A DNA stretch of 33,943 nt from Candidatus Methylomirabilota bacterium (GTDB taxonomy: Bacteria; Methylomirabilota; Methylomirabilia; Methylomirabilales; CSP1-5): contig JAPUFX010000018.1 of NCBI GenBank assembly GCA_027293415.1, positions 1 through 33,943 on the forward strand, written 5' to 3'. The position numbers and the translations under genes are program-made. A model generated the notes under the pieces. It saw only the letters and a program-made list of their open reading frames with translations. It searched no databases and was not told where the DNA came from. Numbering within the stretch: the first letter of the stretch is position 1; each line of letters begins with the position of its first letter. Of this stretch, positions 26,615-33,943 are shown piece after piece.

Positions 26615-26758
26615 GATTATTCACATAGAAGTGAATAATCTGCCCTCCGGGCTTCGACTCCGCCCCGCGTTTGCGGGGCGTCGCTCAGGGCTAGCCTTGA
26701 GTCCCGCCGCAGCGGCGGGACGCATTATTCATGAAGACACTCCGTTCGTGAATAATGC
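26615..26758. repeat. Cluster of four near-perfect hairpins
   Basis: Four successive inverted repeats: GATTATTCAC/GTGAATAATC (26615-26640, 6-nt loop); CGCCCCGC/GCGGGGCG (26661-26680, 4-nt loop); GTCCCGCCGC/GCGGCGGGAC (26701-26721); and GCATTATTCATGAA/TTCGTGAATAATGC (26722-26758, one G-T pair). The first and last share the ATTATTCA/TGAATAAT core, so they can also pair with each other and enclose the two GC hairpins. Resembles mosaic REP/BIME-like elements. A further pair GTGCTC/GAGCAC lies just downstream (26812-26837). Confidence 0.8.
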
Positions 26759-26948: not shown

Positions 26949-27121
26949 TAGTGCCGTTCCAACTATTTCTACCTACTTTCTCGCTGCACTGGTTCACGAC
27001 CCTTGCAACAAGGCAAGCCGCTCAAATTCGGCCCCTCGATCCTCCTCGGGGTGGTGAGCGGTTCGGCTGAGCTCACCGTCGAAGCCCTGTCGAACCACTT
27101 ATCAAGTTGGAACGGCACTAG
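26948..27121 (-). mobile_element. MITE copy 3 (174 bp)
   Basis: Same length, ends and interior as copy 2; perfect terminal inverted repeats between CTAG sites at 26948-26951 and 27118-27121. Its right end encodes the last residues and the TGA stop of the minus-strand PilZ gene. Confidence 0.87.
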
Positions 27122-28154
27122 TTGGTGCGGCACTAGCTTGGGAAGGAAGAGAAGAGGGCCTTAAATTCGCCACCTGGTCAAGGAGCTTGGGAAGAAGGTC
27201 CAGCCACGGCCCTTCTGTCCCTTCAACAAATCGAAGGCCGAGCGTGTACCGTTCTGGCTCCTCCGGCCCGTCTGGCTCCTTCTTACACCACCGGATCTCA
27301 ACAGTAAAATTAATAGCCTGCTCGGTTACCCCGACGGATTCAAACGAGAGATCCAGGATCGTTCCCGGATCGAACTCCTCGGAGACTTGCACCCGCAGGC
27401 CGGTCTTGCTGACGTCCAGGAGGTTCACGGGACGGGGGGGATGCCCGTTCTGATGCAGCGCTGTCACGATTCCCAGTCGATCTATCCGGTCCAGGTGGTG
27501 GCGCTCTTCCATCCGCCACATGACACTTGTTGGAGGAATGAGGTCACCGAAGAGCTGGGACGCAGACGTGAGGAAGGACAAGCCGACGATGGCCTCTTGC
27601 TTGATCCGGTGCAGTTCCGCGAGGGCGGTTTTGGCCTTCTTCTGCGTGGGAGTGAGAAGGGGATCCAAAGATTGGGCTCTCAGGGTAGCAAATTTTGAAA
27701 GAACTTCCGGGTCTCCCTTCCGGGCGAGGTACCTTTCGGCTTCGGCCTCGAAGATCTCGATCCTGTCGAGATGGTCATCGCGGAGGGCCTGCTGGTACTC
27801 GGCCAACATGGCGGAAGAGGATTGCTCTTTCCAGCGACGGAGGAGTTTTTCCTTCAAGCCGAAGCGGTCGATCACGCGGTACAGATCACGGACAGCCTTT
27901 CGCGCCCCTTCGATCAGGTCCTCCTGCTCGGGGTACAGCACAGTCTCGAACTCCTGTTCTTTCTCAATGACTTTAACGCGAAAGTTGTTCAGGAGTTCTT
28001 CGGTCTCCTGGAGGAGGACCTGCTGTTTCCCTTTGATCTTCTCTTTTGCATCGGCCGTCGAAAGCCCTTGCACGGCCATGATAGCGCGCACTTCTGCAAT
28101 GAACTCTTCAAACAGCTGGAGGGATCGACGTGCCATGGCTCTGAGATCGTCCAC
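27102..28154 (-). CDS. Coiled-coil protein with C-terminal PilZ domain
   Basis: About 350 aa. The first 210 residues are charged and helical (KEKIKGKQQVLLQETEELLN, LARKGDPEVLSKFATLRAQ), with no membrane segment. The C-terminal third is PilZ-like: DRLGIVTALHQNGHPPRPVN, then NLLDVSKTGLRVQVSEEF (D/N-x-S-x-x-G motif) and YTLGLRFVEG. The usual RxxxR ahead of the barrel is not obvious, so c-di-GMP binding is uncertain. I chose GTG 28154, with GGAGG 8 nt upstream; the GTG at 28172 would add six residues. The last residues (TSAVPT) and stop come from the adjacent MITE, so the original C-terminus was replaced. It is the only minus-strand gene within the signalling cluster. Confidence 0.75.
   Translation of the reverse strand: MDDLRAMARRSLQLFEEFIAEVRAIMAVQGLSTADAKEKIKGKQQVLLQETEELLNNFRVKVIEKEQEFETVLYPEQEDLIEGARKAVRDLYRVIDRFGLKEKLLRRWKEQSSSAMLAEYQQALRDDHLDRIEIFEAEAERYLARKGDPEVLSKFATLRAQSLDPLLTPTQKKAKTALAELHRIKQEAIVGLSFLTSASQLFGDLIPPTSVMWRMEERHHLDRIDRLGIVTALHQNGHPPRPVNLLDVSKTGLRVQVSEEFDPGTILDLSFESVGVTEQAINFTVEIRWCKKEPDGPEEPERYTLGLRFVEGTEGPWLDLLPKLLDQVANLRPSSLPSQASAAPTSAVPT
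27121..27136. repeat. Orphan terminal repeat beside MITE copy 3
   Basis: GTTGGTGCGGCACTAG matches the MITE end GTTGGAACGGCACTAG at 14 of 16 positions and lies immediately outside copy 3. It may be a leftover end of an earlier element. Confidence 0.6.
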
Positions 28155-28515
28155 GGGTAAGGCCTCCGTCACACGTTAAAAAACCCGAGCTTACCATCAG
28201 TTTCGCAACGTCCATGCCATATTGTCATGGATGCGATGGTGGGGAGTGAACCCCTCGGTCAGGCGGTCCCGAGACAAAGGGGAAAGCGGCACCCTCCTTG
28301 CATAGTGAAGCTGATCGACCCTACCGATCCAACATGGAAGAGGGGCATGGAGGGGGTGCAAATCTCCGAATTCAGACACTGAAGTATGCCGGACGCGAAA
28401 TCCGCCTACCGCGATGGACCGTCTGAAAATCTTCCCAATTTGCGTGGAGTGAAATCCTACCTCTGATTGAGCAGGCGAAGACCAGCCGAGGCAACGGGAG
28501 ACCTGGAGGAGGAAG
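28155..28515. other. Divergent spacer between PilZ and HD-GYP genes
   Basis: About 360 bp between two divergent genes of c-di-GMP signalling. It should hold both promoters, but no convincing sigma-70 pair was found. Its only structured part is the candidate aptamer at 28352-28425. Confidence 0.5.
28352..28425 (+). promoter_or_regulatory. Possible degenerate c-di-GMP-I (GEMM) riboswitch-like element
   Basis: Upstream of the HD-GYP gene, the sequence GGGTGCAAATC...CCGGACGCGAAATCC, then GCCTACC and GATGG, follows the order of GEMM-I landmarks (GGGCAAACC, GGACGCAAAGCC, GCCTA, ATGG). A perfect hairpin TTCAG-ACA-CTGAA (28371-28383) sits where the first stem should be, and GGGT can pair with ATCC. 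Several invariant positions differ, so this is only a candidate. Confidence 0.2.
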
Positions 28516-29472
28516 ATGGGAACGATCGTGCGGGGCCGCCTCACGGATGTGAATAAGGAGTTGTGGCTGGTCCTTTCACTGTTTTTCCTGGCTGGGGTGA
28601 TGAATTTCTTGATCGCCTCACACCGCATGGTGCTCGGGTTCTACGTTGTTCCTACCCTATTCTCAGCCTATTACTACGGCCGGCGCCACGCCGTGCTGAC
28701 GGCGTTTGCAAGTCTATTCATGGTCATTTTGCTCGTTTATTATAACCCCGTGTTGTTCAGCACCGTGGGAACAGGCTCCCCCGAAGACAAATGGTATGAC
28801 ATCACGATCTGGGGGGGGATCTTGGTGGTAACCGCCTACGCCATGGGTACTCTCTACGATCACAAGCAAAACCACCTTCGCGAGTTGCGGGAGACCTACC
28901 ATGGGGTCCTGCTCATCCTGCGCCACTTCATCTCCAAGGACGAGTACACCCAGAACCACTCCTACCGGGTGTCGATCTACGCCGCTAAGGTCGCCTCGTA
29001 TCTCGGACTCAACTCTGAGCGAATCGAAGATGTCCGCGCGGCTGCGTTGCTGCATGATATTGGCAAGCTGGATATCAGCAGGGAAATCCTCTACAAAGCG
29101 GCGCGTCTGACCCAGGAAGAGTTCGAGGAGATGAAGCGCCATGTGGAGAAGGGGGTAGGTATGCTTGAGTCAGTAGGTGGCTCGCTGCGCCGGGTACTCC
29201 CCATCATCTTGTCCCACCATGACCGATTCGATGGATCTGGCTACCACCCCACCAGTGGGAATGATATTCCGCTGGAGGCACGCATCATTGCGGTAGCGGA
29301 TGTGTACGACTCTCTCACGAGTGATCGGCCGTACCGGAAGGCCATGTCGCCCTTCGATGCCAAAGAGGTCGTCACCAAGGAGTCGGGAACTGAATTTGAC
29401 CCACAGGTGGTTGATGCATTCTTAGCCGCGTTCCGCAGAGGTGAAATGGAAGTCCCGGAGGTTCTGGTGTAG
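28516..29472 (+). CDS. Membrane HD-GYP phosphodiesterase (c-di-GMP)
   Basis: 318 aa. Four hydrophobic segments occupy about 14-115 (LVLSLFFLAGVMNFLIAS; FYVVPTLFSAYYYG; a third near 62-80; WGGILVVTAYAMGTLY), forming a small membrane sensor. The HD-GYP domain starts near 130: NHSYRVSIYAAKVASYLGL, LLHDIGKLDISREILYKAA near 178, the HHDRFDGSGYH motif near 236 (canonical HHExxDGxGYP, here with D for E and H for P), and VADVYDSLTSDRPYRKAM near 256. Metal ligands H, HD, H, HH and D all appear present, so hydrolysis of c-di-GMP is likely. Good site AGGAGGAAG before the ATG. A diguanylate cyclase with receiver follows 104 bp downstream. Confidence 0.9.
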   Translation: MGTIVRGRLTDVNKELWLVLSLFFLAGVMNFLIASHRMVLGFYVVPTLFSAYYYGRRHAVLTAFASLFMVILLVYYNPVLFSTVGTGSPEDKWYDITIWGGILVVTAYAMGTLYDHKQNHLRELRETYHGVLLILRHFISKDEYTQNHSYRVSIYAAKVASYLGLNSERIEDVRAAALLHDIGKLDISREILYKAARLTQEEFEEMKRHVEKGVGMLESVGGSLRRVLPIILSHHDRFDGSGYHPTSGNDIPLEARIIAVADVYDSLTSDRPYRKAMSPFDAKEVVTKESGTEFDPQVVDAFLAAFRRGEMEVPEVLV

Positions 29473-29576
29473 CGCGATGGGAGGACATGGAATCTATCGT
29501 ATCGAATAGGAAAGGTCGTTGAGAAGGATGAGTGGATGGCCACGGAACATTTCATAGCCGACCAGCAGGAGGATAG

Positions 29577-31010
29577 ATGGCGACCATCCTGATCGTCGAC
29601 GATGAGCCGATGCTGCGGCAGATGGTCCGGGAGCACCTGGAGAGGCATGGCCTTCAGATCGAGGAGGCGGAAAACGGCCAGGAGGCCCTGGAGTTTGCCC
29701 ACCGGGTAAACCCAGACCTTATCCTCCTTGACATTATGCTGCCGGACCTCGACGGGCTTCAGGTGTGTCAAACCCTCAGGGAGCACGAGGCTACTCGGGC
29801 CATCCCGGTGGTGCTCCTCACTTCCAAGGACGGCCTAGAGGATCGGATCCGGGGCCTGGATGCGGGGGCCAACGACTTCCTGACAAAGCCTGTGCAGCCA
29901 GGTGAGCTCTTGGCCCGGGTCAAGGCCCATCTGCGTACGCGAGAGTTATGGGAAGAGCTGGAGCAGCGACGGAAGGACTTGGCCCAGCTCCTCGAGCTGT
30001 CGAAAGCCGTCGCCTCCACCCTCCGGCCATCGGAAATCTTCCACCTCATTGTCGAGCGTACCGCCCAATTGGTTAGCGCCATGCGCTGCTCGCTCGTCAT
30101 CGTCGGAGATGCAGAGAAGGGCTATGTCGTCGCTTCTCAGGATAATCCGAGAATCACGCGTCTGCCAATCACACTAGAGCGGTATCCGGAGATTCAGGAG
30201 GCAATCCGGCGCCAGCAACCGGTCGTGGTGGAGGATGTGAGCCAGGATCCGCTCATGGCTGGAGTGTGGGACGTGATGGTCCCGTTGGAGTTCCGGACTC
30301 TCCTCGTGGTGCCGATCAACCTGCGCGCCAAGGTGGTGGGAACGCTCGTCCTCCGGATGGCGCGCTCGGGCTCTCCCTTTGACACGAGAGAACTGCAACT
30401 CTGTCAGCTCATCGGTGAAGTCGCCGCCATCGCCCTGCAGAACGCCCACCTCTTCGAGAGCCTGGAGCATGCCAACCTGAACCTGGAGCAGCTCACGCTG
30501 ATCGACGATTTGACTCAGGCGTACAACCGTCGCTTCCTCTTCCGAAAGTTAGAGGAGGAAGTGGAGCGCTCCAAGTGGTATGGGCAGCCACTCTGCTGCA
30601 TCATGCTTGATGTGGACGACTTTAAGGAGGTCAACGATCGTTACGGACATGCCCAAGGGGACGTGATCCTGAAAGAGCTGGCAAACGTGATCCAAGACGT
30701 GATCCGGCGGGGGGATGTGCTCGCGCGGTATGGCGGAGAGGAGTTCGTGCTCCTCCTCCCTCAGACAGAGGGGGAGGGAGCCTGGATAGAGGCGGAACGT
30801 ATCCGGCGGACGATCCGCGAGCATCGGTTTCCCGGGATTGAGCCTCTTCTGCCTTTGACGATGAGCCTGGGGATTGCCAACTATCCTTTGAACTCCATCA
30901 CGGAGGCGAGCGACCTCCTGAAGCTAGCTGACCGGGCCATGTACGCTGCGAAGCATGCCGGCAAAGACGGCATCGCGTGTTCATGGGCGCCATCGGGGAC
31001 TTCTGATTGA
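29577..31010 (+). CDS. Response regulator diguanylate cyclase (REC-GAF-GGDEF)
   Basis: 477 aa. The receiver (1-120) is complete: VDDE near 8-10, phosphoacceptor D52 in LILLDIMLPDLDG, and K in NDFLTKPVQP. A coiled linker leads to a GAF domain at about 150-300 (LSKAVASTLRPSEIFHLIVE ... GEVAAIALQNAHLFESLE). The GGDEF domain follows: DDLTQAYNRRFLFRKLEEEV, LDVDDFKEVNDRYGHAQGD, and the active site YGGEEFVLLLP near 385, with an RxxD inhibitory site (RRGD) five residues before it. It should synthesise c-di-GMP on phosphorylation and be product-inhibited. CAGGAGGA precedes the ATG. The kinase is not in the immediate vicinity. Confidence 0.95.
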   Translation: MATILIVDDEPMLRQMVREHLERHGLQIEEAENGQEALEFAHRVNPDLILLDIMLPDLDGLQVCQTLREHEATRAIPVVLLTSKDGLEDRIRGLDAGANDFLTKPVQPGELLARVKAHLRTRELWEELEQRRKDLAQLLELSKAVASTLRPSEIFHLIVERTAQLVSAMRCSLVIVGDAEKGYVVASQDNPRITRLPITLERYPEIQEAIRRQQPVVVEDVSQDPLMAGVWDVMVPLEFRTLLVVPINLRAKVVGTLVLRMARSGSPFDTRELQLCQLIGEVAAIALQNAHLFESLEHANLNLEQLTLIDDLTQAYNRRFLFRKLEEEVERSKWYGQPLCCIMLDVDDFKEVNDRYGHAQGDVILKELANVIQDVIRRGDVLARYGGEEFVLLLPQTEGEGAWIEAERIRRTIREHRFPGIEPLLPLTMSLGIANYPLNSITEASDLLKLADRAMYAAKHAGKDGIACSWAPSGTSD

Positions 31011-31035
31011 CCGAAACTTCCCTCGAGTGAAACGG

Positions 31036-31143
31036 ATGAGCGATGAGTCAGTCACAGTGGTGCTCGTTGAGAACAGCCCCGGCGAGCGCGTGGCCCAATC
31101 GAGCAAGAGGACGATGAGACGAAGCAAGGCCCCGGTCGGGTGA
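31036..31143 (+). CDS. Very short open frame resembling a receiver N-terminus (doubtful)
   Basis: 35 codons reading MSDESVTVVLVENSPGERVA, whose VTVVLVENS looks like the first strand of a receiver domain, but it stops after a basic tail. It lies between the diguanylate cyclase and selC. It may be the stub of a truncated regulator or chance. Confidence 0.15.
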   Translation: MSDESVTVVLVENSPGERVAQSSKRTMRRSKAPVG

Positions 31144-31196
31144 ATCCGTCCCACGGATGGCCTCTATGGAGAAGGGGGTTAGGGCTTCGTGATGGC

Positions 31197-31291
31197 TGGC
31201 GGAGGCGTGTGGGAATCGAACCCACCGGCCCGCTTTTGGCAGGCCCACCGGTTTTGAAGACCGGGAAAGCCACCAGGCCCAATCCGCCTCC
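31197..31291 (-). tRNA. selC: tRNA-Sec (anticodon UCA)
   Basis: Reading the minus strand from 31291: acceptor strand GGAGGCGG, D arm GGGCC-TGGT-GGCTT, anticodon stem CCGGT / ACCGG with loop CTTCAAA (anticodon TCA at 31257-31255), a long variable arm with a 7-bp stem GGCCTGC-CAAAA-GCGGGCC, T arm GTGGG-TTCGATT-CCCAC, and acceptor ACGCCTCC, then discriminator G and an encoded CCA (31199-31197). The length of 95 nt, long variable arm and extended acceptor are those of bacterial tRNA-Sec (same length as E. coli selC). The eighth acceptor pair would be a G-A mismatch. The organism therefore reads UGA as selenocysteine in some genes; selA, selB and selD are not in the window. Confidence 0.95.
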
Positions 31292-31297
31292 ATCCTT

Positions 31298-32362
31298 TTA
31301 GCTAGCAGAGTTACGATGGGGTGTCAACCCGTTACTACTCTCCCGTTCATGATTTGTCAAGGTTGCAAGAGCCGCTTGGAGGTCCGCCGCCTGCGTATGG
31401 GTGTAACGGCGGGTCATGTTCGCCGTCTTGTGACCGAGGAGGTCTTGCACATAGGACGCCGAGACTCCGTTGCGGTTAAGCCGGGAGGCCACGGTATGCC
31501 GGAGATCGTGGAACCAGAGGTGGGCAATCCCCGCCGCCTGAATCCCTTTCTTAAGGTGGTAGTGAACAGCCCACTTACTCCAAGGTGTCCCGTCCGGCCT
31601 CGTGAACACATGAGCGGAGGTCGCCGCTCCCTTGCGCCGGAGCAGGATATAGTAAAGGGATTCGTTGATCGGCATGAGTCGCTTTTCCCCGCGCTTGGTC
31701 GGAGGAAAGTCCAGGACGCGCTCCGCGAGATCAACCTGAGTCCAGGTGAGCTTTATCAGTTCCCCCTCCCTCATACCGGTACAGAGAGCCGCCTGCATAA
31801 GATCAACGAAGGCGGGTTTGAGGTGAGGGAGGAGGGCCTTTTCCTCGGCTTCCGTCAATTCCCGATCTCGCCCCGGACCTTCCGGGAGCATCTTAAATTT
31901 TCGTTCTCGCCGGAGCCAATCCCACTCGAGGGCCATCCGAAGCATATTGCGGAGCACCGCGAGTTCCCGATTGACCGTCGCCCCGCTCACGCCTTCAGCC
32001 TTCCGCTTGCCGATATAGGTACTGATCGCCTCGGCGGTTATGTCCTCGAGGGCCACGCCGTCAAATTGCTTTGCCAGGTTCCGCACCCGTAACTCAATCG
32101 TTTCTAAGTCTCGCCCGTAATTCCGTTTGTCCTCCAAGAATGGGGCCACGAGGTCGGAAAAGGTCTTATCTTTTCCCACCCCGAGCAACCCGTTTTTATG
32201 ATCCTCGTGAAGCTGCCTCTCCCGTATCTTCGCAAGTTTCAAATCCCCCACGATCTCGGACTTATACTTACCGTTGAGCCGGTAGCGGACGCCCCACGCC
32301 TCCCGCTCCTCGCCATTCGTGGTCCACTTTCTGCAATATAGTTTGACTGTAAACTCTGCCAT
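31298..32362 (-). CDS. Tyrosine recombinase (integrase) at selC
   Basis: 354 aa phage/ICE-type integrase. An N-terminal arm-binding region (WGVRYRLNGKYKSEIVGDLK), a core-binding SAM-like domain (about 70-160), and a catalytic domain with R in CTGMREGELIKLTW near 200, HxxR in HDLRHTVASRL near 297, and Tyr in LLGHKTANMTRRYTH near 330. It catalyses site-specific recombination of its element. The gene ends 6 bp before the 5' end of tRNA-Sec and runs in the same direction as the tRNA, so the attachment site would be at the tRNA 5' side, not the usual 3' end. ATG 32362 has GGGAGGG 5 nt upstream. The promoter at 32464-32492 has an operator-like palindrome. Confidence 0.93.
   Translation of the reverse strand: MAEFTVKLYCRKWTTNGEEREAWGVRYRLNGKYKSEIVGDLKLAKIRERQLHEDHKNGLLGVGKDKTFSDLVAPFLEDKRNYGRDLETIELRVRNLAKQFDGVALEDITAEAISTYIGKRKAEGVSGATVNRELAVLRNMLRMALEWDWLRRERKFKMLPEGPGRDRELTEAEEKALLPHLKPAFVDLMQAALCTGMREGELIKLTWTQVDLAERVLDFPPTKRGEKRLMPINESLYYILLRRKGAATSAHVFTRPDGTPWSKWAVHYHLKKGIQAAGIAHLWFHDLRHTVASRLNRNGVSASYVQDLLGHKTANMTRRYTHTQAADLQAALATLTNHERESSNGLTPHRNSAS
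31299..31327 (-). promoter_or_regulatory. Candidate selC promoter inside the integrase 3' end
   Basis: On the minus strand TTGACA (31327-31322), a 17-bp spacer, then TAGCTA (31304-31299; weak -10), then 7 bp to the first base of tRNA-Sec. Transcription would start at or next to G1. E. coli selC transcripts are known to start at G1 with no leader. The -35 and spacer lie within the integrase coding sequence. A second TTGACA lies at 31360-31355. Confidence 0.45.
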
Positions 32363-32463
32363 TACGCCCTCCCTTTTTCTTAAGCCAGTCCTGGGCCGCC
32401 TCTATCATGGCCTCGCGGAGCGTCTTGCCGGCCCACTCCCTACACTCCGTCTCCTGTTCAGGA

Positions 32464-32492
32464 GTTATACAAGAACGCTCTTGTATTGTCAA
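32464..32492 (-). promoter_or_regulatory. Integrase promoter with a palindromic operator in the spacer
   Basis: On the minus strand a perfect TTGACA (32492-32487), a 17-bp spacer and TATAAC (32469-32464; 5 of 6). The spacer and the edge of the -10 hold an 8-bp-arm palindrome ATACAAGA-nnnn-TCTTGTAT (32467-32486). This placement is typical of a repressor operator. The predicted RNA starts near 32457 with about 95 nt of leader to the integrase ATG. Confidence 0.6.
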
Positions 32493-32499
32493 GAGGATT

Positions 32500-32528
32500 T
32501 TGCAAAGGCGCTCTCGGAGGTGTATTAT
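32500..32528 (+). promoter_or_regulatory. Candidate divergent promoter for the accessory genes
   Basis: TTGCAA (32500-32505), a 17-bp spacer and TATTAT (32523-32528; 5 of 6) on the + strand. The transcript would start within a few bases of ATG 32538, giving an almost leaderless mRNA. Confidence 0.4.
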
Positions 32529-32537
32529 CTATGGCAT

Positions 32538-32687
32538 ATGGCCAAGAGAAAGAATCCCCATGCTGTAGCCCTTGGTCGCAGAGGCGGCAGGAAGGGTGGC
32601 AAGGCCCGATGGGAGGGTGTGTCCTCGGAGGAGCGCAGCAAGATTCTCCGTAGGGCTGCCCTGGCGCGGTGGAGGAAGAAGAAGTGA
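32538..32687 (+). CDS. Small basic KGG-like protein
   Basis: 49 aa, about a third Arg and Lys: MAKRKNPHAVALGRRGGRKG then GKARWEGVSSEERSKILRRA and ARWRKKK. This pattern (NPHAVALGRxGGxKGGKAR...SxEER..I.RxAA.ARW) is a recurrent small-protein family related to KGG-motif proteins, presumed to bind nucleic acid; function unknown. GGAGG lies 17 nt upstream of the ATG, too far for normal use, and the predicted transcript start is nearly at the ATG. Its stop overlaps the start of the next gene (GTGA), so the two are coupled. Likely cargo of the selC element. Confidence 0.7.
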   Translation: MAKRKNPHAVALGRRGGRKGGKARWEGVSSEERSKILRRAALARWRKKK

Positions 32688-33352
32688 ACAAAGGCGACAA
32701 AAGGACCTTTCTCTGTGCTGGCTGTGGAGTCCTTAGCCTCCATATTGCGCATACGGTTGGAGAGGGTCCGCACGAGATAGTAGTCATTCGAGGCAGACCG
32801 CCAGGGGTAAAGAGGCCATATGGAGAAAATGTTAAGCTGTTTCATGTAGTCTACAAATGCGTTGGGTGTGGGAAGGATACGTACCTCCTCATCCGACCCC
32901 CGGTTCAGGAAATACCAGAAAAAGTTATCCACCAGTTTCCCGTTGGCACTCCCACGACCCATCCCTCAGTCCCGGGACCTGTGAAGGAGGCGGCTAATGA
33001 AGCAGAGAAGTGCCTTGCTATCGGTGCAAATAACGCCTGCGGAGTCATGGCCCGCAGGGCGATTCACGCTCTCTGCCAGGATAAGAAGGCTAAGGGAAAG
33101 GACCTGCCCAAGCAGCTAAAGTACCTCCATGACAACCAGGTGATAGCCCAAGACCTGCGGGAATGGGCCGATGATCTTCGGATACTGGGGCGTTCCGGTG
33201 CACACCCAGAGTGGCCCCAGGTGTCGCCTCAGGAGGCCAAGTACGCAGTCGAATTCCTAAGAGAGATCATCAGATACGTCTACATTAATCCAGCCGAGCG
33301 TGCTGCACAGAGGGTAGCAGAAGTGAAAAAGAAGAAAAAGGGAGAAAGGTAA
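32684..33352 (+). CDS. Zinc-ribbon DUF4145 protein
   Basis: 222 aa. Two CxxC pairs near the N-terminus (FLCAGCGVLSLH and YKCVGCGKDTYL) form a zinc ribbon. The C-terminal part is DUF4145: AANEAEKCLAIGANNACGVM, ARRAIHALCQDKKAKGKDLP, ADDLRILGRSGAHPEWP, then the helical end. DUF4145 occurs in prophage and defence islands and fused to restriction-type proteins, but has no settled activity. GTG 32684 has GGAGG 8 nt upstream and overlaps the preceding stop as GTGA; a GTG at 32669 is possible. The tail is a run of Lys (VKKKKKGER). Likely cargo of the integrated element. Confidence 0.85.
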   Translation: MNKGDKRTFLCAGCGVLSLHIAHTVGEGPHEIVVIRGRPPGVKRPYGENVKLFHVVYKCVGCGKDTYLLIRPPVQEIPEKVIHQFPVGTPTTHPSVPGPVKEAANEAEKCLAIGANNACGVMARRAIHALCQDKKAKGKDLPKQLKYLHDNQVIAQDLREWADDLRILGRSGAHPEWPQVSPQEAKYAVEFLREIIRYVYINPAERAAQRVAEVKKKKKGER

Positions 33353-33499
33353 AGGGGGAGAAAAAAGCTGCTGCCACTCTCGACGAGGACCCGATCGTCT
33401 TCGGGGAGACAATCGTGCCAGACCCCTCTCGCACGGTGGTGGAATAAACACAAGGACTAGCCACCTTCCTCTCCTCAGCCAACCATCGGGCGGACCATC

Positions 33500-33943
33500 C
33501 TACGGTGCGCTCCAGATGACCTTCCCGGCCGTGCCAAAGAAAACAAGAGAAGATTCACGCCGCTTTTCGACCACCCCTGTTGACTCTGCTTCGAGCGAAA
33601 CACTACCAAGAACTGCTTTGCCCCTTCCTGGCTTTCCCACGGTGATACGCGCCGAGCCATCAGCATCAACATCTAGTCGGGCTTGGGCTTCGATCCACTC
33701 CCCCGTTCTGAGGATTAGGCTCGCTTCTCCTTTAACTAGCACAACTTCAAATGCCACATCCTTTTTAACAAGACTCAGCAAAGATGGGGACACGATGGCA
33801 TAGTTATGCTTGGCTTCGCCATAGAGATTGAGACTCGGAATACCCCCGTTCACCACAAGGTCGCCGCGGATATTTCCCTTCTCATCCCGAAGAACAAACT
33901 TTTCTGCCTCGACCACCTTTGCCACCTTGCCTTGCGTAGCCTG
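33500..33943 (-). CDS. Hypothetical beta-rich protein, N-terminus beyond the window
   Basis: Minus-strand frame open to the right edge. It reads VVEAEKFVLRDEKGNIRGDL then VVNGGIPSLNLYGEAKHNYA, a repeat pattern (AExFVLxDExGxxRxxL...L.LYD) I recall from small envelope-associated proteins of environmental bacteria that have an N-terminal membrane anchor. A GTG at 33925 could start it, but the frame continues upstream (QATQGK), so a signal sequence outside the window is likely. The second half has ARLDVDADGSARITVG and ends SLVFFGTAGKVIWSAP. Function unknown. It converges on the DUF4145 gene with 147 bp between them. Confidence 0.6.
   Translation of the reverse strand, partial: QATQGKVAKVVEAEKFVLRDEKGNIRGDLVVNGGIPSLNLYGEAKHNYAIVSPSLLSLVKKDVAFEVVLVKGEASLILRTGEWIEAQARLDVDADGSARITVGKPGRGKAVLGSVSLEAESTGVVEKRRESSLVFFGTAGKVIWSAP

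What the first reader, a model, noticed from the sequence alone, without database searches (positions are those of the whole stretch)
31197..32362. Integrase abuts the 5' end of tRNA-Sec and carries the tRNA promoter
Most integrative elements recombine into tRNA 3' ends. Here the integrase stop codon is 6 bp from G1 of tRNA-Sec, both on the minus strand, and the only TTGACA-17-TAGCTA with a start at G1 lies inside the integrase 3' end. Either the element uses a 5'-end attachment site and has replaced the native selC promoter, or selC itself travels with the element. In both cases selenocysteine use would be linked to a mobile element.
Basis: partly seen in the sequence, partly recalled or inferred. 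Interest (0 to 1): 0.8.

Follow-up and report, generated by a model that had tools for sequence, protein, structure and literature searches.

The report
Prophage replaces selC's promoter
A virus-like element has inserted itself into the front half of a bacterium's only selenocysteine-tRNA gene, rebuilding that half and cutting the gene off from its own promoter, so that the tRNA must now be transcribed from inside the element's integrase gene; this is a rare type of insertion, but it recurs in this bacterial phylum.

Summary
selC (31197-31291, minus) lies 6 bp after the stop codon of a collinear tyrosine recombinase (31298-32362). An exact copy of selC nt 1-42 (G1 through the anticodon loop) sits on another contig of the same genome (G000:C155), followed by prophage genes (terminase, HNH, primase). 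Congener G003 carries the empty site: upstream DNA as on C155 (98%), one intact selC, downstream DNA as in the window (96%). So attL, attR and attB are all seen. The element regenerates the 5' half of selC and strands the conserved native promoter at its far end. selC now follows two TTGACA-17-TA motifs in the integrase's last 65 bp; their use is inferred. selC does not travel: all six congeners have it uninterrupted. The same build, with both junctions and empty sites, occurs at tRNA-Pro and tRNA-Arg in the genus. In the four genus cases a strong terminator-like hairpin lies just inside the stranded 5' fragment and would cap the orphaned promoter. 5'-half integration is known but rare (159 of 3919 Islander islands; archaeal pTN3). 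New here: the selC target, the promoter/terminator bracket and its frequency in Methylomirabilota.

The parts
31197..31291 (-). selC (tRNA-Sec, TCA) as rebuilt at the attR junction: 5' part (within nt 1-42) supplied by the element, nt 43-95 host
31250..31291 (-). attachment core: selC nt 1-42, identical to G000:C155:12531-12572 (attL); runs exactly from G1 through the anticodon loop plus 3 nt of the stem
31298..32362 (-). tyrosine recombinase (integrase), first gene of the element, collinear with selC
31299..31327 (-). promoter-like TTGACA-17-TAGCTA (TGn before the -10), 7 nt before G1, inside the integrase 3' end; function inferred
   Evidence: rejected by the stricter consensus scan
31332..31360 (-). 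second promoter-like TTGACA-17-TAGTAA, 40 nt before G1; scores 10.5 against 10.7 for the native selC promoter; function inferred
32669..33352 (+). element cargo gene, DUF4145 protein
31292..33943 (.). integrase-side part of the element that is in the window; it continues past the contig end, the other end is on G000:C155:1-12530
27098..31196 (.). host flank downstream of selC, 96% identical and contiguous with selC in the empty-site congener G003

Best explanation
A prophage-like element (integrase at one end; primase, HNH endonuclease and terminase near the other) integrated by tyrosine-recombinase exchange within the first 42 nt of selC, most likely at the anticodon loop. Shown: the core runs exactly from G1 to nt 42; the intact selC at attR has its 5' end from the element; the native upstream region with its conserved promoter now lies at attL, followed by a dead 42-nt tRNA fragment and then a terminator-like hairpin. 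Inferred: selC is transcribed from promoters in the last 65 bp of the integrase gene and/or by read-through from the integrase; the hairpin stops the orphaned native promoter from reading into the prophage; in the circular form the order would be integrase - promoter - half tRNA - terminator, so that excision restores the native promoter.
For: Exact 42-nt selC 5' copy on C155 (E = 2e-15). attB in G003 is contiguous with both flanks (98% over 2470 bp, 96% over 4214 bp). attB/attL/attR line up base for base, with identity ending at G1. TerL, HNH and primase families on the C155 side. The sister integrase (39-41% identical) in G004 has the same build at tRNA-Pro-GGG (fragment nt 1-42, 98%), and G000 has it at tRNA-Arg-CCT (fragment nt 1-39, 100%), both with empty sites in congeners. 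Both ends on one contig: G058 tRNA-Arg (nt 1-39, 100%, 17.7 kb away) and G042 tRNA-Thr (nt 1-41, 97.6%). Promoter-like motif better than every other window of its own integrase in 5 of 9 5'-type loci against 1 of 18 3'-type (Fisher p = 0.008); three more loci tested afterwards gave near-consensus motifs at tRNA-Arg-TCT and tRNA-Met and none at tRNA-Leu. Hairpin plus T-rich tract 7-27 nt inside the fragment in 4 of 4 genus cases, none as strong in 60 control stretches.
Against: The element is split over two contigs of a draft MAG and its middle is not seen. The promoters are predictions: TAGCTA is a poor -10, and four of the nine 5'-type loci of the main test (plus tRNA-Leu) show no good promoter motif, so read-through or another promoter type may serve there. 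No strong terminator follows the fragments in the class-level cases (G058, G042). The terminator test is a heuristic of mine; the general scan reported none (its loop limit is 8 nt).
Confidence: 0.9

Rival explanations
1. selC itself is cargo of the mobile element.
For: selC touches the integrase and no tRNA 3' repeat is present.
Against: selC lies uninterrupted in all six congeners with the same upstream flank, and in G003 with the same downstream flank as well; the displaced copy is only nt 1-42; selC-like matches occur in 77 of 95 phylum genomes.
Confidence: 0.01
2. An ordinary 3'-end insertion, with an integrase by chance next to the 5' end, or a stale integrase remnant.
For: Most tRNA-targeting elements are of the 3' type (PMC4383910: 3760 of 3919).
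Against: No selC 3' fragment elsewhere in the genome; 5' fragment with prophage genes behind it; synteny breaks exactly at the 5' core. The integrase ORF is complete, with matches to N-terminal and catalytic domains.
Confidence: 0.02
3. Same integration, but selC is transcribed by read-through from the integrase promoter rather than from a promoter in the integrase 3' end.
For: Integrase and selC are collinear with 6 bp between and no terminator was found there. For archaeal pTN3-like elements the rebuilt tRNA is said to be expressed from the integrase promoter (PMC8371274).
Against: Two perfect TTGACA boxes at 17-nt spacing lie in the last 65 bp and the best scores above all other integrase windows; similar motifs end 8-12 nt before G1 in tRNA-Asp, Thr, Arg-TCT and Met cases. 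Integrase is usually repressed in lysogens (general knowledge), while tRNA-Sec is needed.
Confidence: 0.3
4. Assembly chimera in a MAG: integrase contig wrongly joined to selC.
For: Draft MAG of 221 contigs, 3% contamination; contig ends lie in multi-copy sequence.
Against: Two independent contigs carry the two complementary junctions, each joined at the same 42-nt core; the same build is found in other genomes at other tRNAs. Two contigs here overlap by exactly 141 nt, which suggests an assembly word longer than the 42-nt repeat.
Confidence: 0.03

Closest known systems
Genomic islands with a 5' tDNA fragment (Islander, PMC4383910)
   Same: Element lies on the 5' side; attP carries the tRNA 5' part; fragment and whole tRNA in the same orientation; anticodon-centred site class; 159 of 3919 islands
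   Different: selC as target, and the promoter/terminator bracket, are not described in the parts of that paper I read; here 5'-type is about half of the tRNA-adjacent integrases of one genus, against 4% there
pTN3-like archaeal integrative plasmids (PMC5495485, PMC8371274)
   Same: 41-bp core being the 5' half of a tRNA gene up to the anticodon; rebuilt tRNA separated from its original promoter
   Different: Archaeal; the pTN3 integrase gene is split by integration, whereas here it stays whole and ends 6 bp before G1
Pseudomonas phage D3 integrase
   Same: Among the nearest integrases of sequenced phages (36% identity over 82%); attP annotated directly behind the integrase stop
   Different: By sequence the D3 attP reads as a tRNA 3' half in the opposite direction (my reading), i.e. 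the classical 3' type
tRNA-dependent lysogeny of actinophages (PMC10865867)
   Same: Prophage maintenance bound to supply of a host tRNA
   Different: There the tRNA is not rebuilt and the phage brings a whole tRNA gene; here it is rebuilt

Membership tests
tRNA-targeting integrative element with tyrosine recombinase | Integrase of the phage integrase family inside the element, next to one att site | tested here: met
tRNA-targeting integrative element with tyrosine recombinase | Intact tRNA at one end, fragment of the same tRNA in the same orientation at the other, empty site in a relative | tested here: met
5'-tDNA-fragment island | The fragment is the tRNA 5' end and lies upstream of the whole tRNA | tested here: met
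   selC nt 1-42 on C155 with the native upstream flank
5'-tDNA-fragment island | Whole element between the two att sites on one replicon | tested here: inconclusive
   two contigs, middle missing; both ends on one contig for G058 and G042 relatives
temperate prophage | Packaging and replication genes in the element | tested here: met
   TerL, HNH, primase families
temperate prophage | Capsid, portal and tail genes; induction | not tested
   no structural gene recognised on the two contig parts; middle not seen
pTN3-like element | Integrase gene split by integration | tested here: not met
   integrase ORF is complete in the integrated state
tRNA-dependent lysogeny | Host tRNA not rebuilt, phage encodes a whole tRNA of the same type | tested here: not met
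   selC is whole at attR; no tRNA on C155:1-15000

The most novel reading that the evidence does not exclude
In Methylomirabilota, integrases flip readily between the 3' and 5' halves of the near-palindromic anticodon core, and the 5'-type elements carry a dedicated tRNA promoter in the integrase 3' end and a terminator at the other end: a promoter-swap cassette that puts a host tRNA, here the only tRNA-Sec, under prophage control.
Probability: 0.5. Interest if true: 0.65.

Novelty: new variant of a known kind. Interest (0 to 1): 0.5.

Why it matters
Elements that rebuild the tRNA 3' half leave the host promoter in place; a 5'-half element takes over transcription of the tRNA. Here it is the single selC, so all selenoprotein synthesis in the lysogen would depend on element-borne transcription signals. 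The repeated appearance of this build (at least 6 label changes on the tree) offers natural replicates for asking how integrases choose the tRNA half and how a mobile element acquires a housekeeping promoter.

Tried and rejected
Single-protein scans of genome contigs and viral contigs for the integrase gave nothing; a two-row alignment gave the sister in Candidatus Methylomirabilota MohnsGC08_bin020 plus five weak hits in other taxa. Joining C18 to C155 by end overlap failed: no exact overlap, and the ends lie in multi-copy sequence. A single origin of 5'-type integrases is not supported: the 9 scatter over the tree, with as low a change count in 59 of 500 shuffles. Whole-strand folding of the fragment plus terminator was not unusual (z = -0.29); a local hairpin test was used instead, with the caveat that it is my own heuristic. 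Far-side fragments were not found for G049 tRNA-Ser within 57 kb or for other 5'-type loci near contig ends, nor for tRNA-Arg-TCT in G000. The integrase upstream of selC in G090 (466 bp away) looks unrelated: a native-like promoter is in place and no fragment was found.

Full report
Observation. The window is a whole contig (C18) of a 2.75-Mb draft genome. The phylum is Candidatus Methylomirabilota, inferred from the congener G004, whose contig C51 matches VRUN01000002.1 in length and content, Candidatus Methylomirabilota bacterium MohnsGC08_bin020.

Three junctions. Searching the genome with selC gave one further strong hit: an exact copy of selC nt 1-42 at C155:12531-12572. In congener G003 the DNA upstream of that fragment (98% over 2470 bp) and the DNA left of selC in the window (96% over 4214 bp) meet at a single intact selC. 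The other five congeners also have an uninterrupted selC with the upstream flank. So G003 is attB, C155 is attL, C18 is attR. Aligned, the shared core is GGAGGCGG...TTCAAAACC, starting exactly at G1 and ending 3 nt past the anticodon loop.

What was displaced. The congeners and C155 share a promoter-like TTGCnn-17/18-TG(T/C)TACACT whose -10 ends 15-21 nt before G1. In this genome it now precedes only the 42-nt fragment and the far end of the element. The whole selC is preceded by the integrase 3' end, with TTGACA-17-TAGTAA and TTGACA-17-TAGCTA (scores 10.5 and 9.3; native 10.7).

What the element is. C155:1-12530 encodes a terminase large subunit, an HNH endonuclease and a primase-like protein, all on one strand; C18 adds the integrase and a DUF4145 gene. 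G+C is 55-56% against 59-61% for the host flanks. The middle is missing, so size (at least 15.2 kb) and completeness are unknown.

Recurrence. Among 47 integrase loci from the search of 95 phylum genomes, 9 run into the 5' end of a tRNA (stop -44 to +11 nt from G1), and 18 face a tRNA 3' end within 200 nt. Far-side 5' fragments were found for tRNA-Arg in G058 and tRNA-Thr in G042 on the same contig, for tRNA-Pro-GGG in G004 (nt 1-42) and for tRNA-Arg-CCT in G000 (nt 1-39, plus a second, nt 1-45, on C151). Empty sites for the last two are in congeners. A check of integrases in the genus gave about 6 5'-type (Sec, Arg-CCT, Arg-TCT, Leu-CAA, Pro-GGG, Met-CAT) and 5 3'-type cases; Islander lists 159 of 3919 (PMC4383910; binomial p about 2e-6, with different definitions and a small sample).

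Bracket. In all four genus-level fragments a stable hairpin with a T-rich tract starts 7-27 nt behind the fragment, reading in the direction of the stranded tRNA promoter; the best of 60 control stretches scored lower. The two class-level elements lack it. Promoter-like motifs stand out in 5 of 9 5'-type loci against 1 of 18 3'-type (p = 0.008). Inferred design: promoter on the integrase side, terminator on the other.

How the type arises. 5'-type integrases do not form one clade. The phage D3 integrase, 36% identical, has its attP directly behind its stop codon too, but by my reading that attP is a tRNA 3' half in the opposite direction. I infer that integrase-to-core geometry stays constant, and that the near-symmetric anticodon stem-loop can be used in either direction, which decides the tRNA half.

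Known ground. 5'-half integration and loss of the original tRNA promoter are described for pTN3 (41-bp core, PMC5495485), and PMC8371274, citing Williams 2002, says the like is seldom met in bacteria. I could not read Williams 2002. Hence: new variant of a known kind, not a new kind.

Noticed in passing
L010:1581-1620 (G003:C205, selC 3' end): About 20 bp of the selC 3' end (CCACACGCCTCCGCCAGCC) is tandemly duplicated right behind selC in G003; possible scar.
   Followed up: no
L171 (G003:C37:34724-34790): An integrase frame runs into a tRNA-Arg-CCT whose nt 16-77 match but whose first 15 nt do not; the rebuilt tRNA looks defective, while an intact copy exists on C195.
   Followed up: partly
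L149:14047-14085 and L155:2474-2518 (G000:C171, C151): Two 5' fragments of tRNA-Arg-CCT in one genome on contigs that overlap by 141 nt: probably a tandem array of 5'-type elements, about 7.2 kb for the first.
   Followed up: partly
L077 (G000:C72) and L050 (G003:C258): tRNA-Leu-CAA and tRNA-Met-CAT are each flanked by integrase sequence on both sides, one 5'-type and one 3'-type.
   Followed up: partly
G007:C94:24701-24722 and 26634-26728: A selC 3' fragment (nt 74-95) lies 1.9 kb behind an intact selC: probably a very small or decayed 3'-type insertion at selC.
   Followed up: no
G008:C314:3231-3325 and C287:13877-13971: Two full-length selC copies in one genome.
   Followed up: no
window 33500-33943; L144 (C38); L145 (C68): The window's right end cuts a gene of a multi-copy family (METLARR... 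/ KVVEAEKFVLRDEKG...) with relatives on several contigs, probably why the assembly breaks here.
   Followed up: partly
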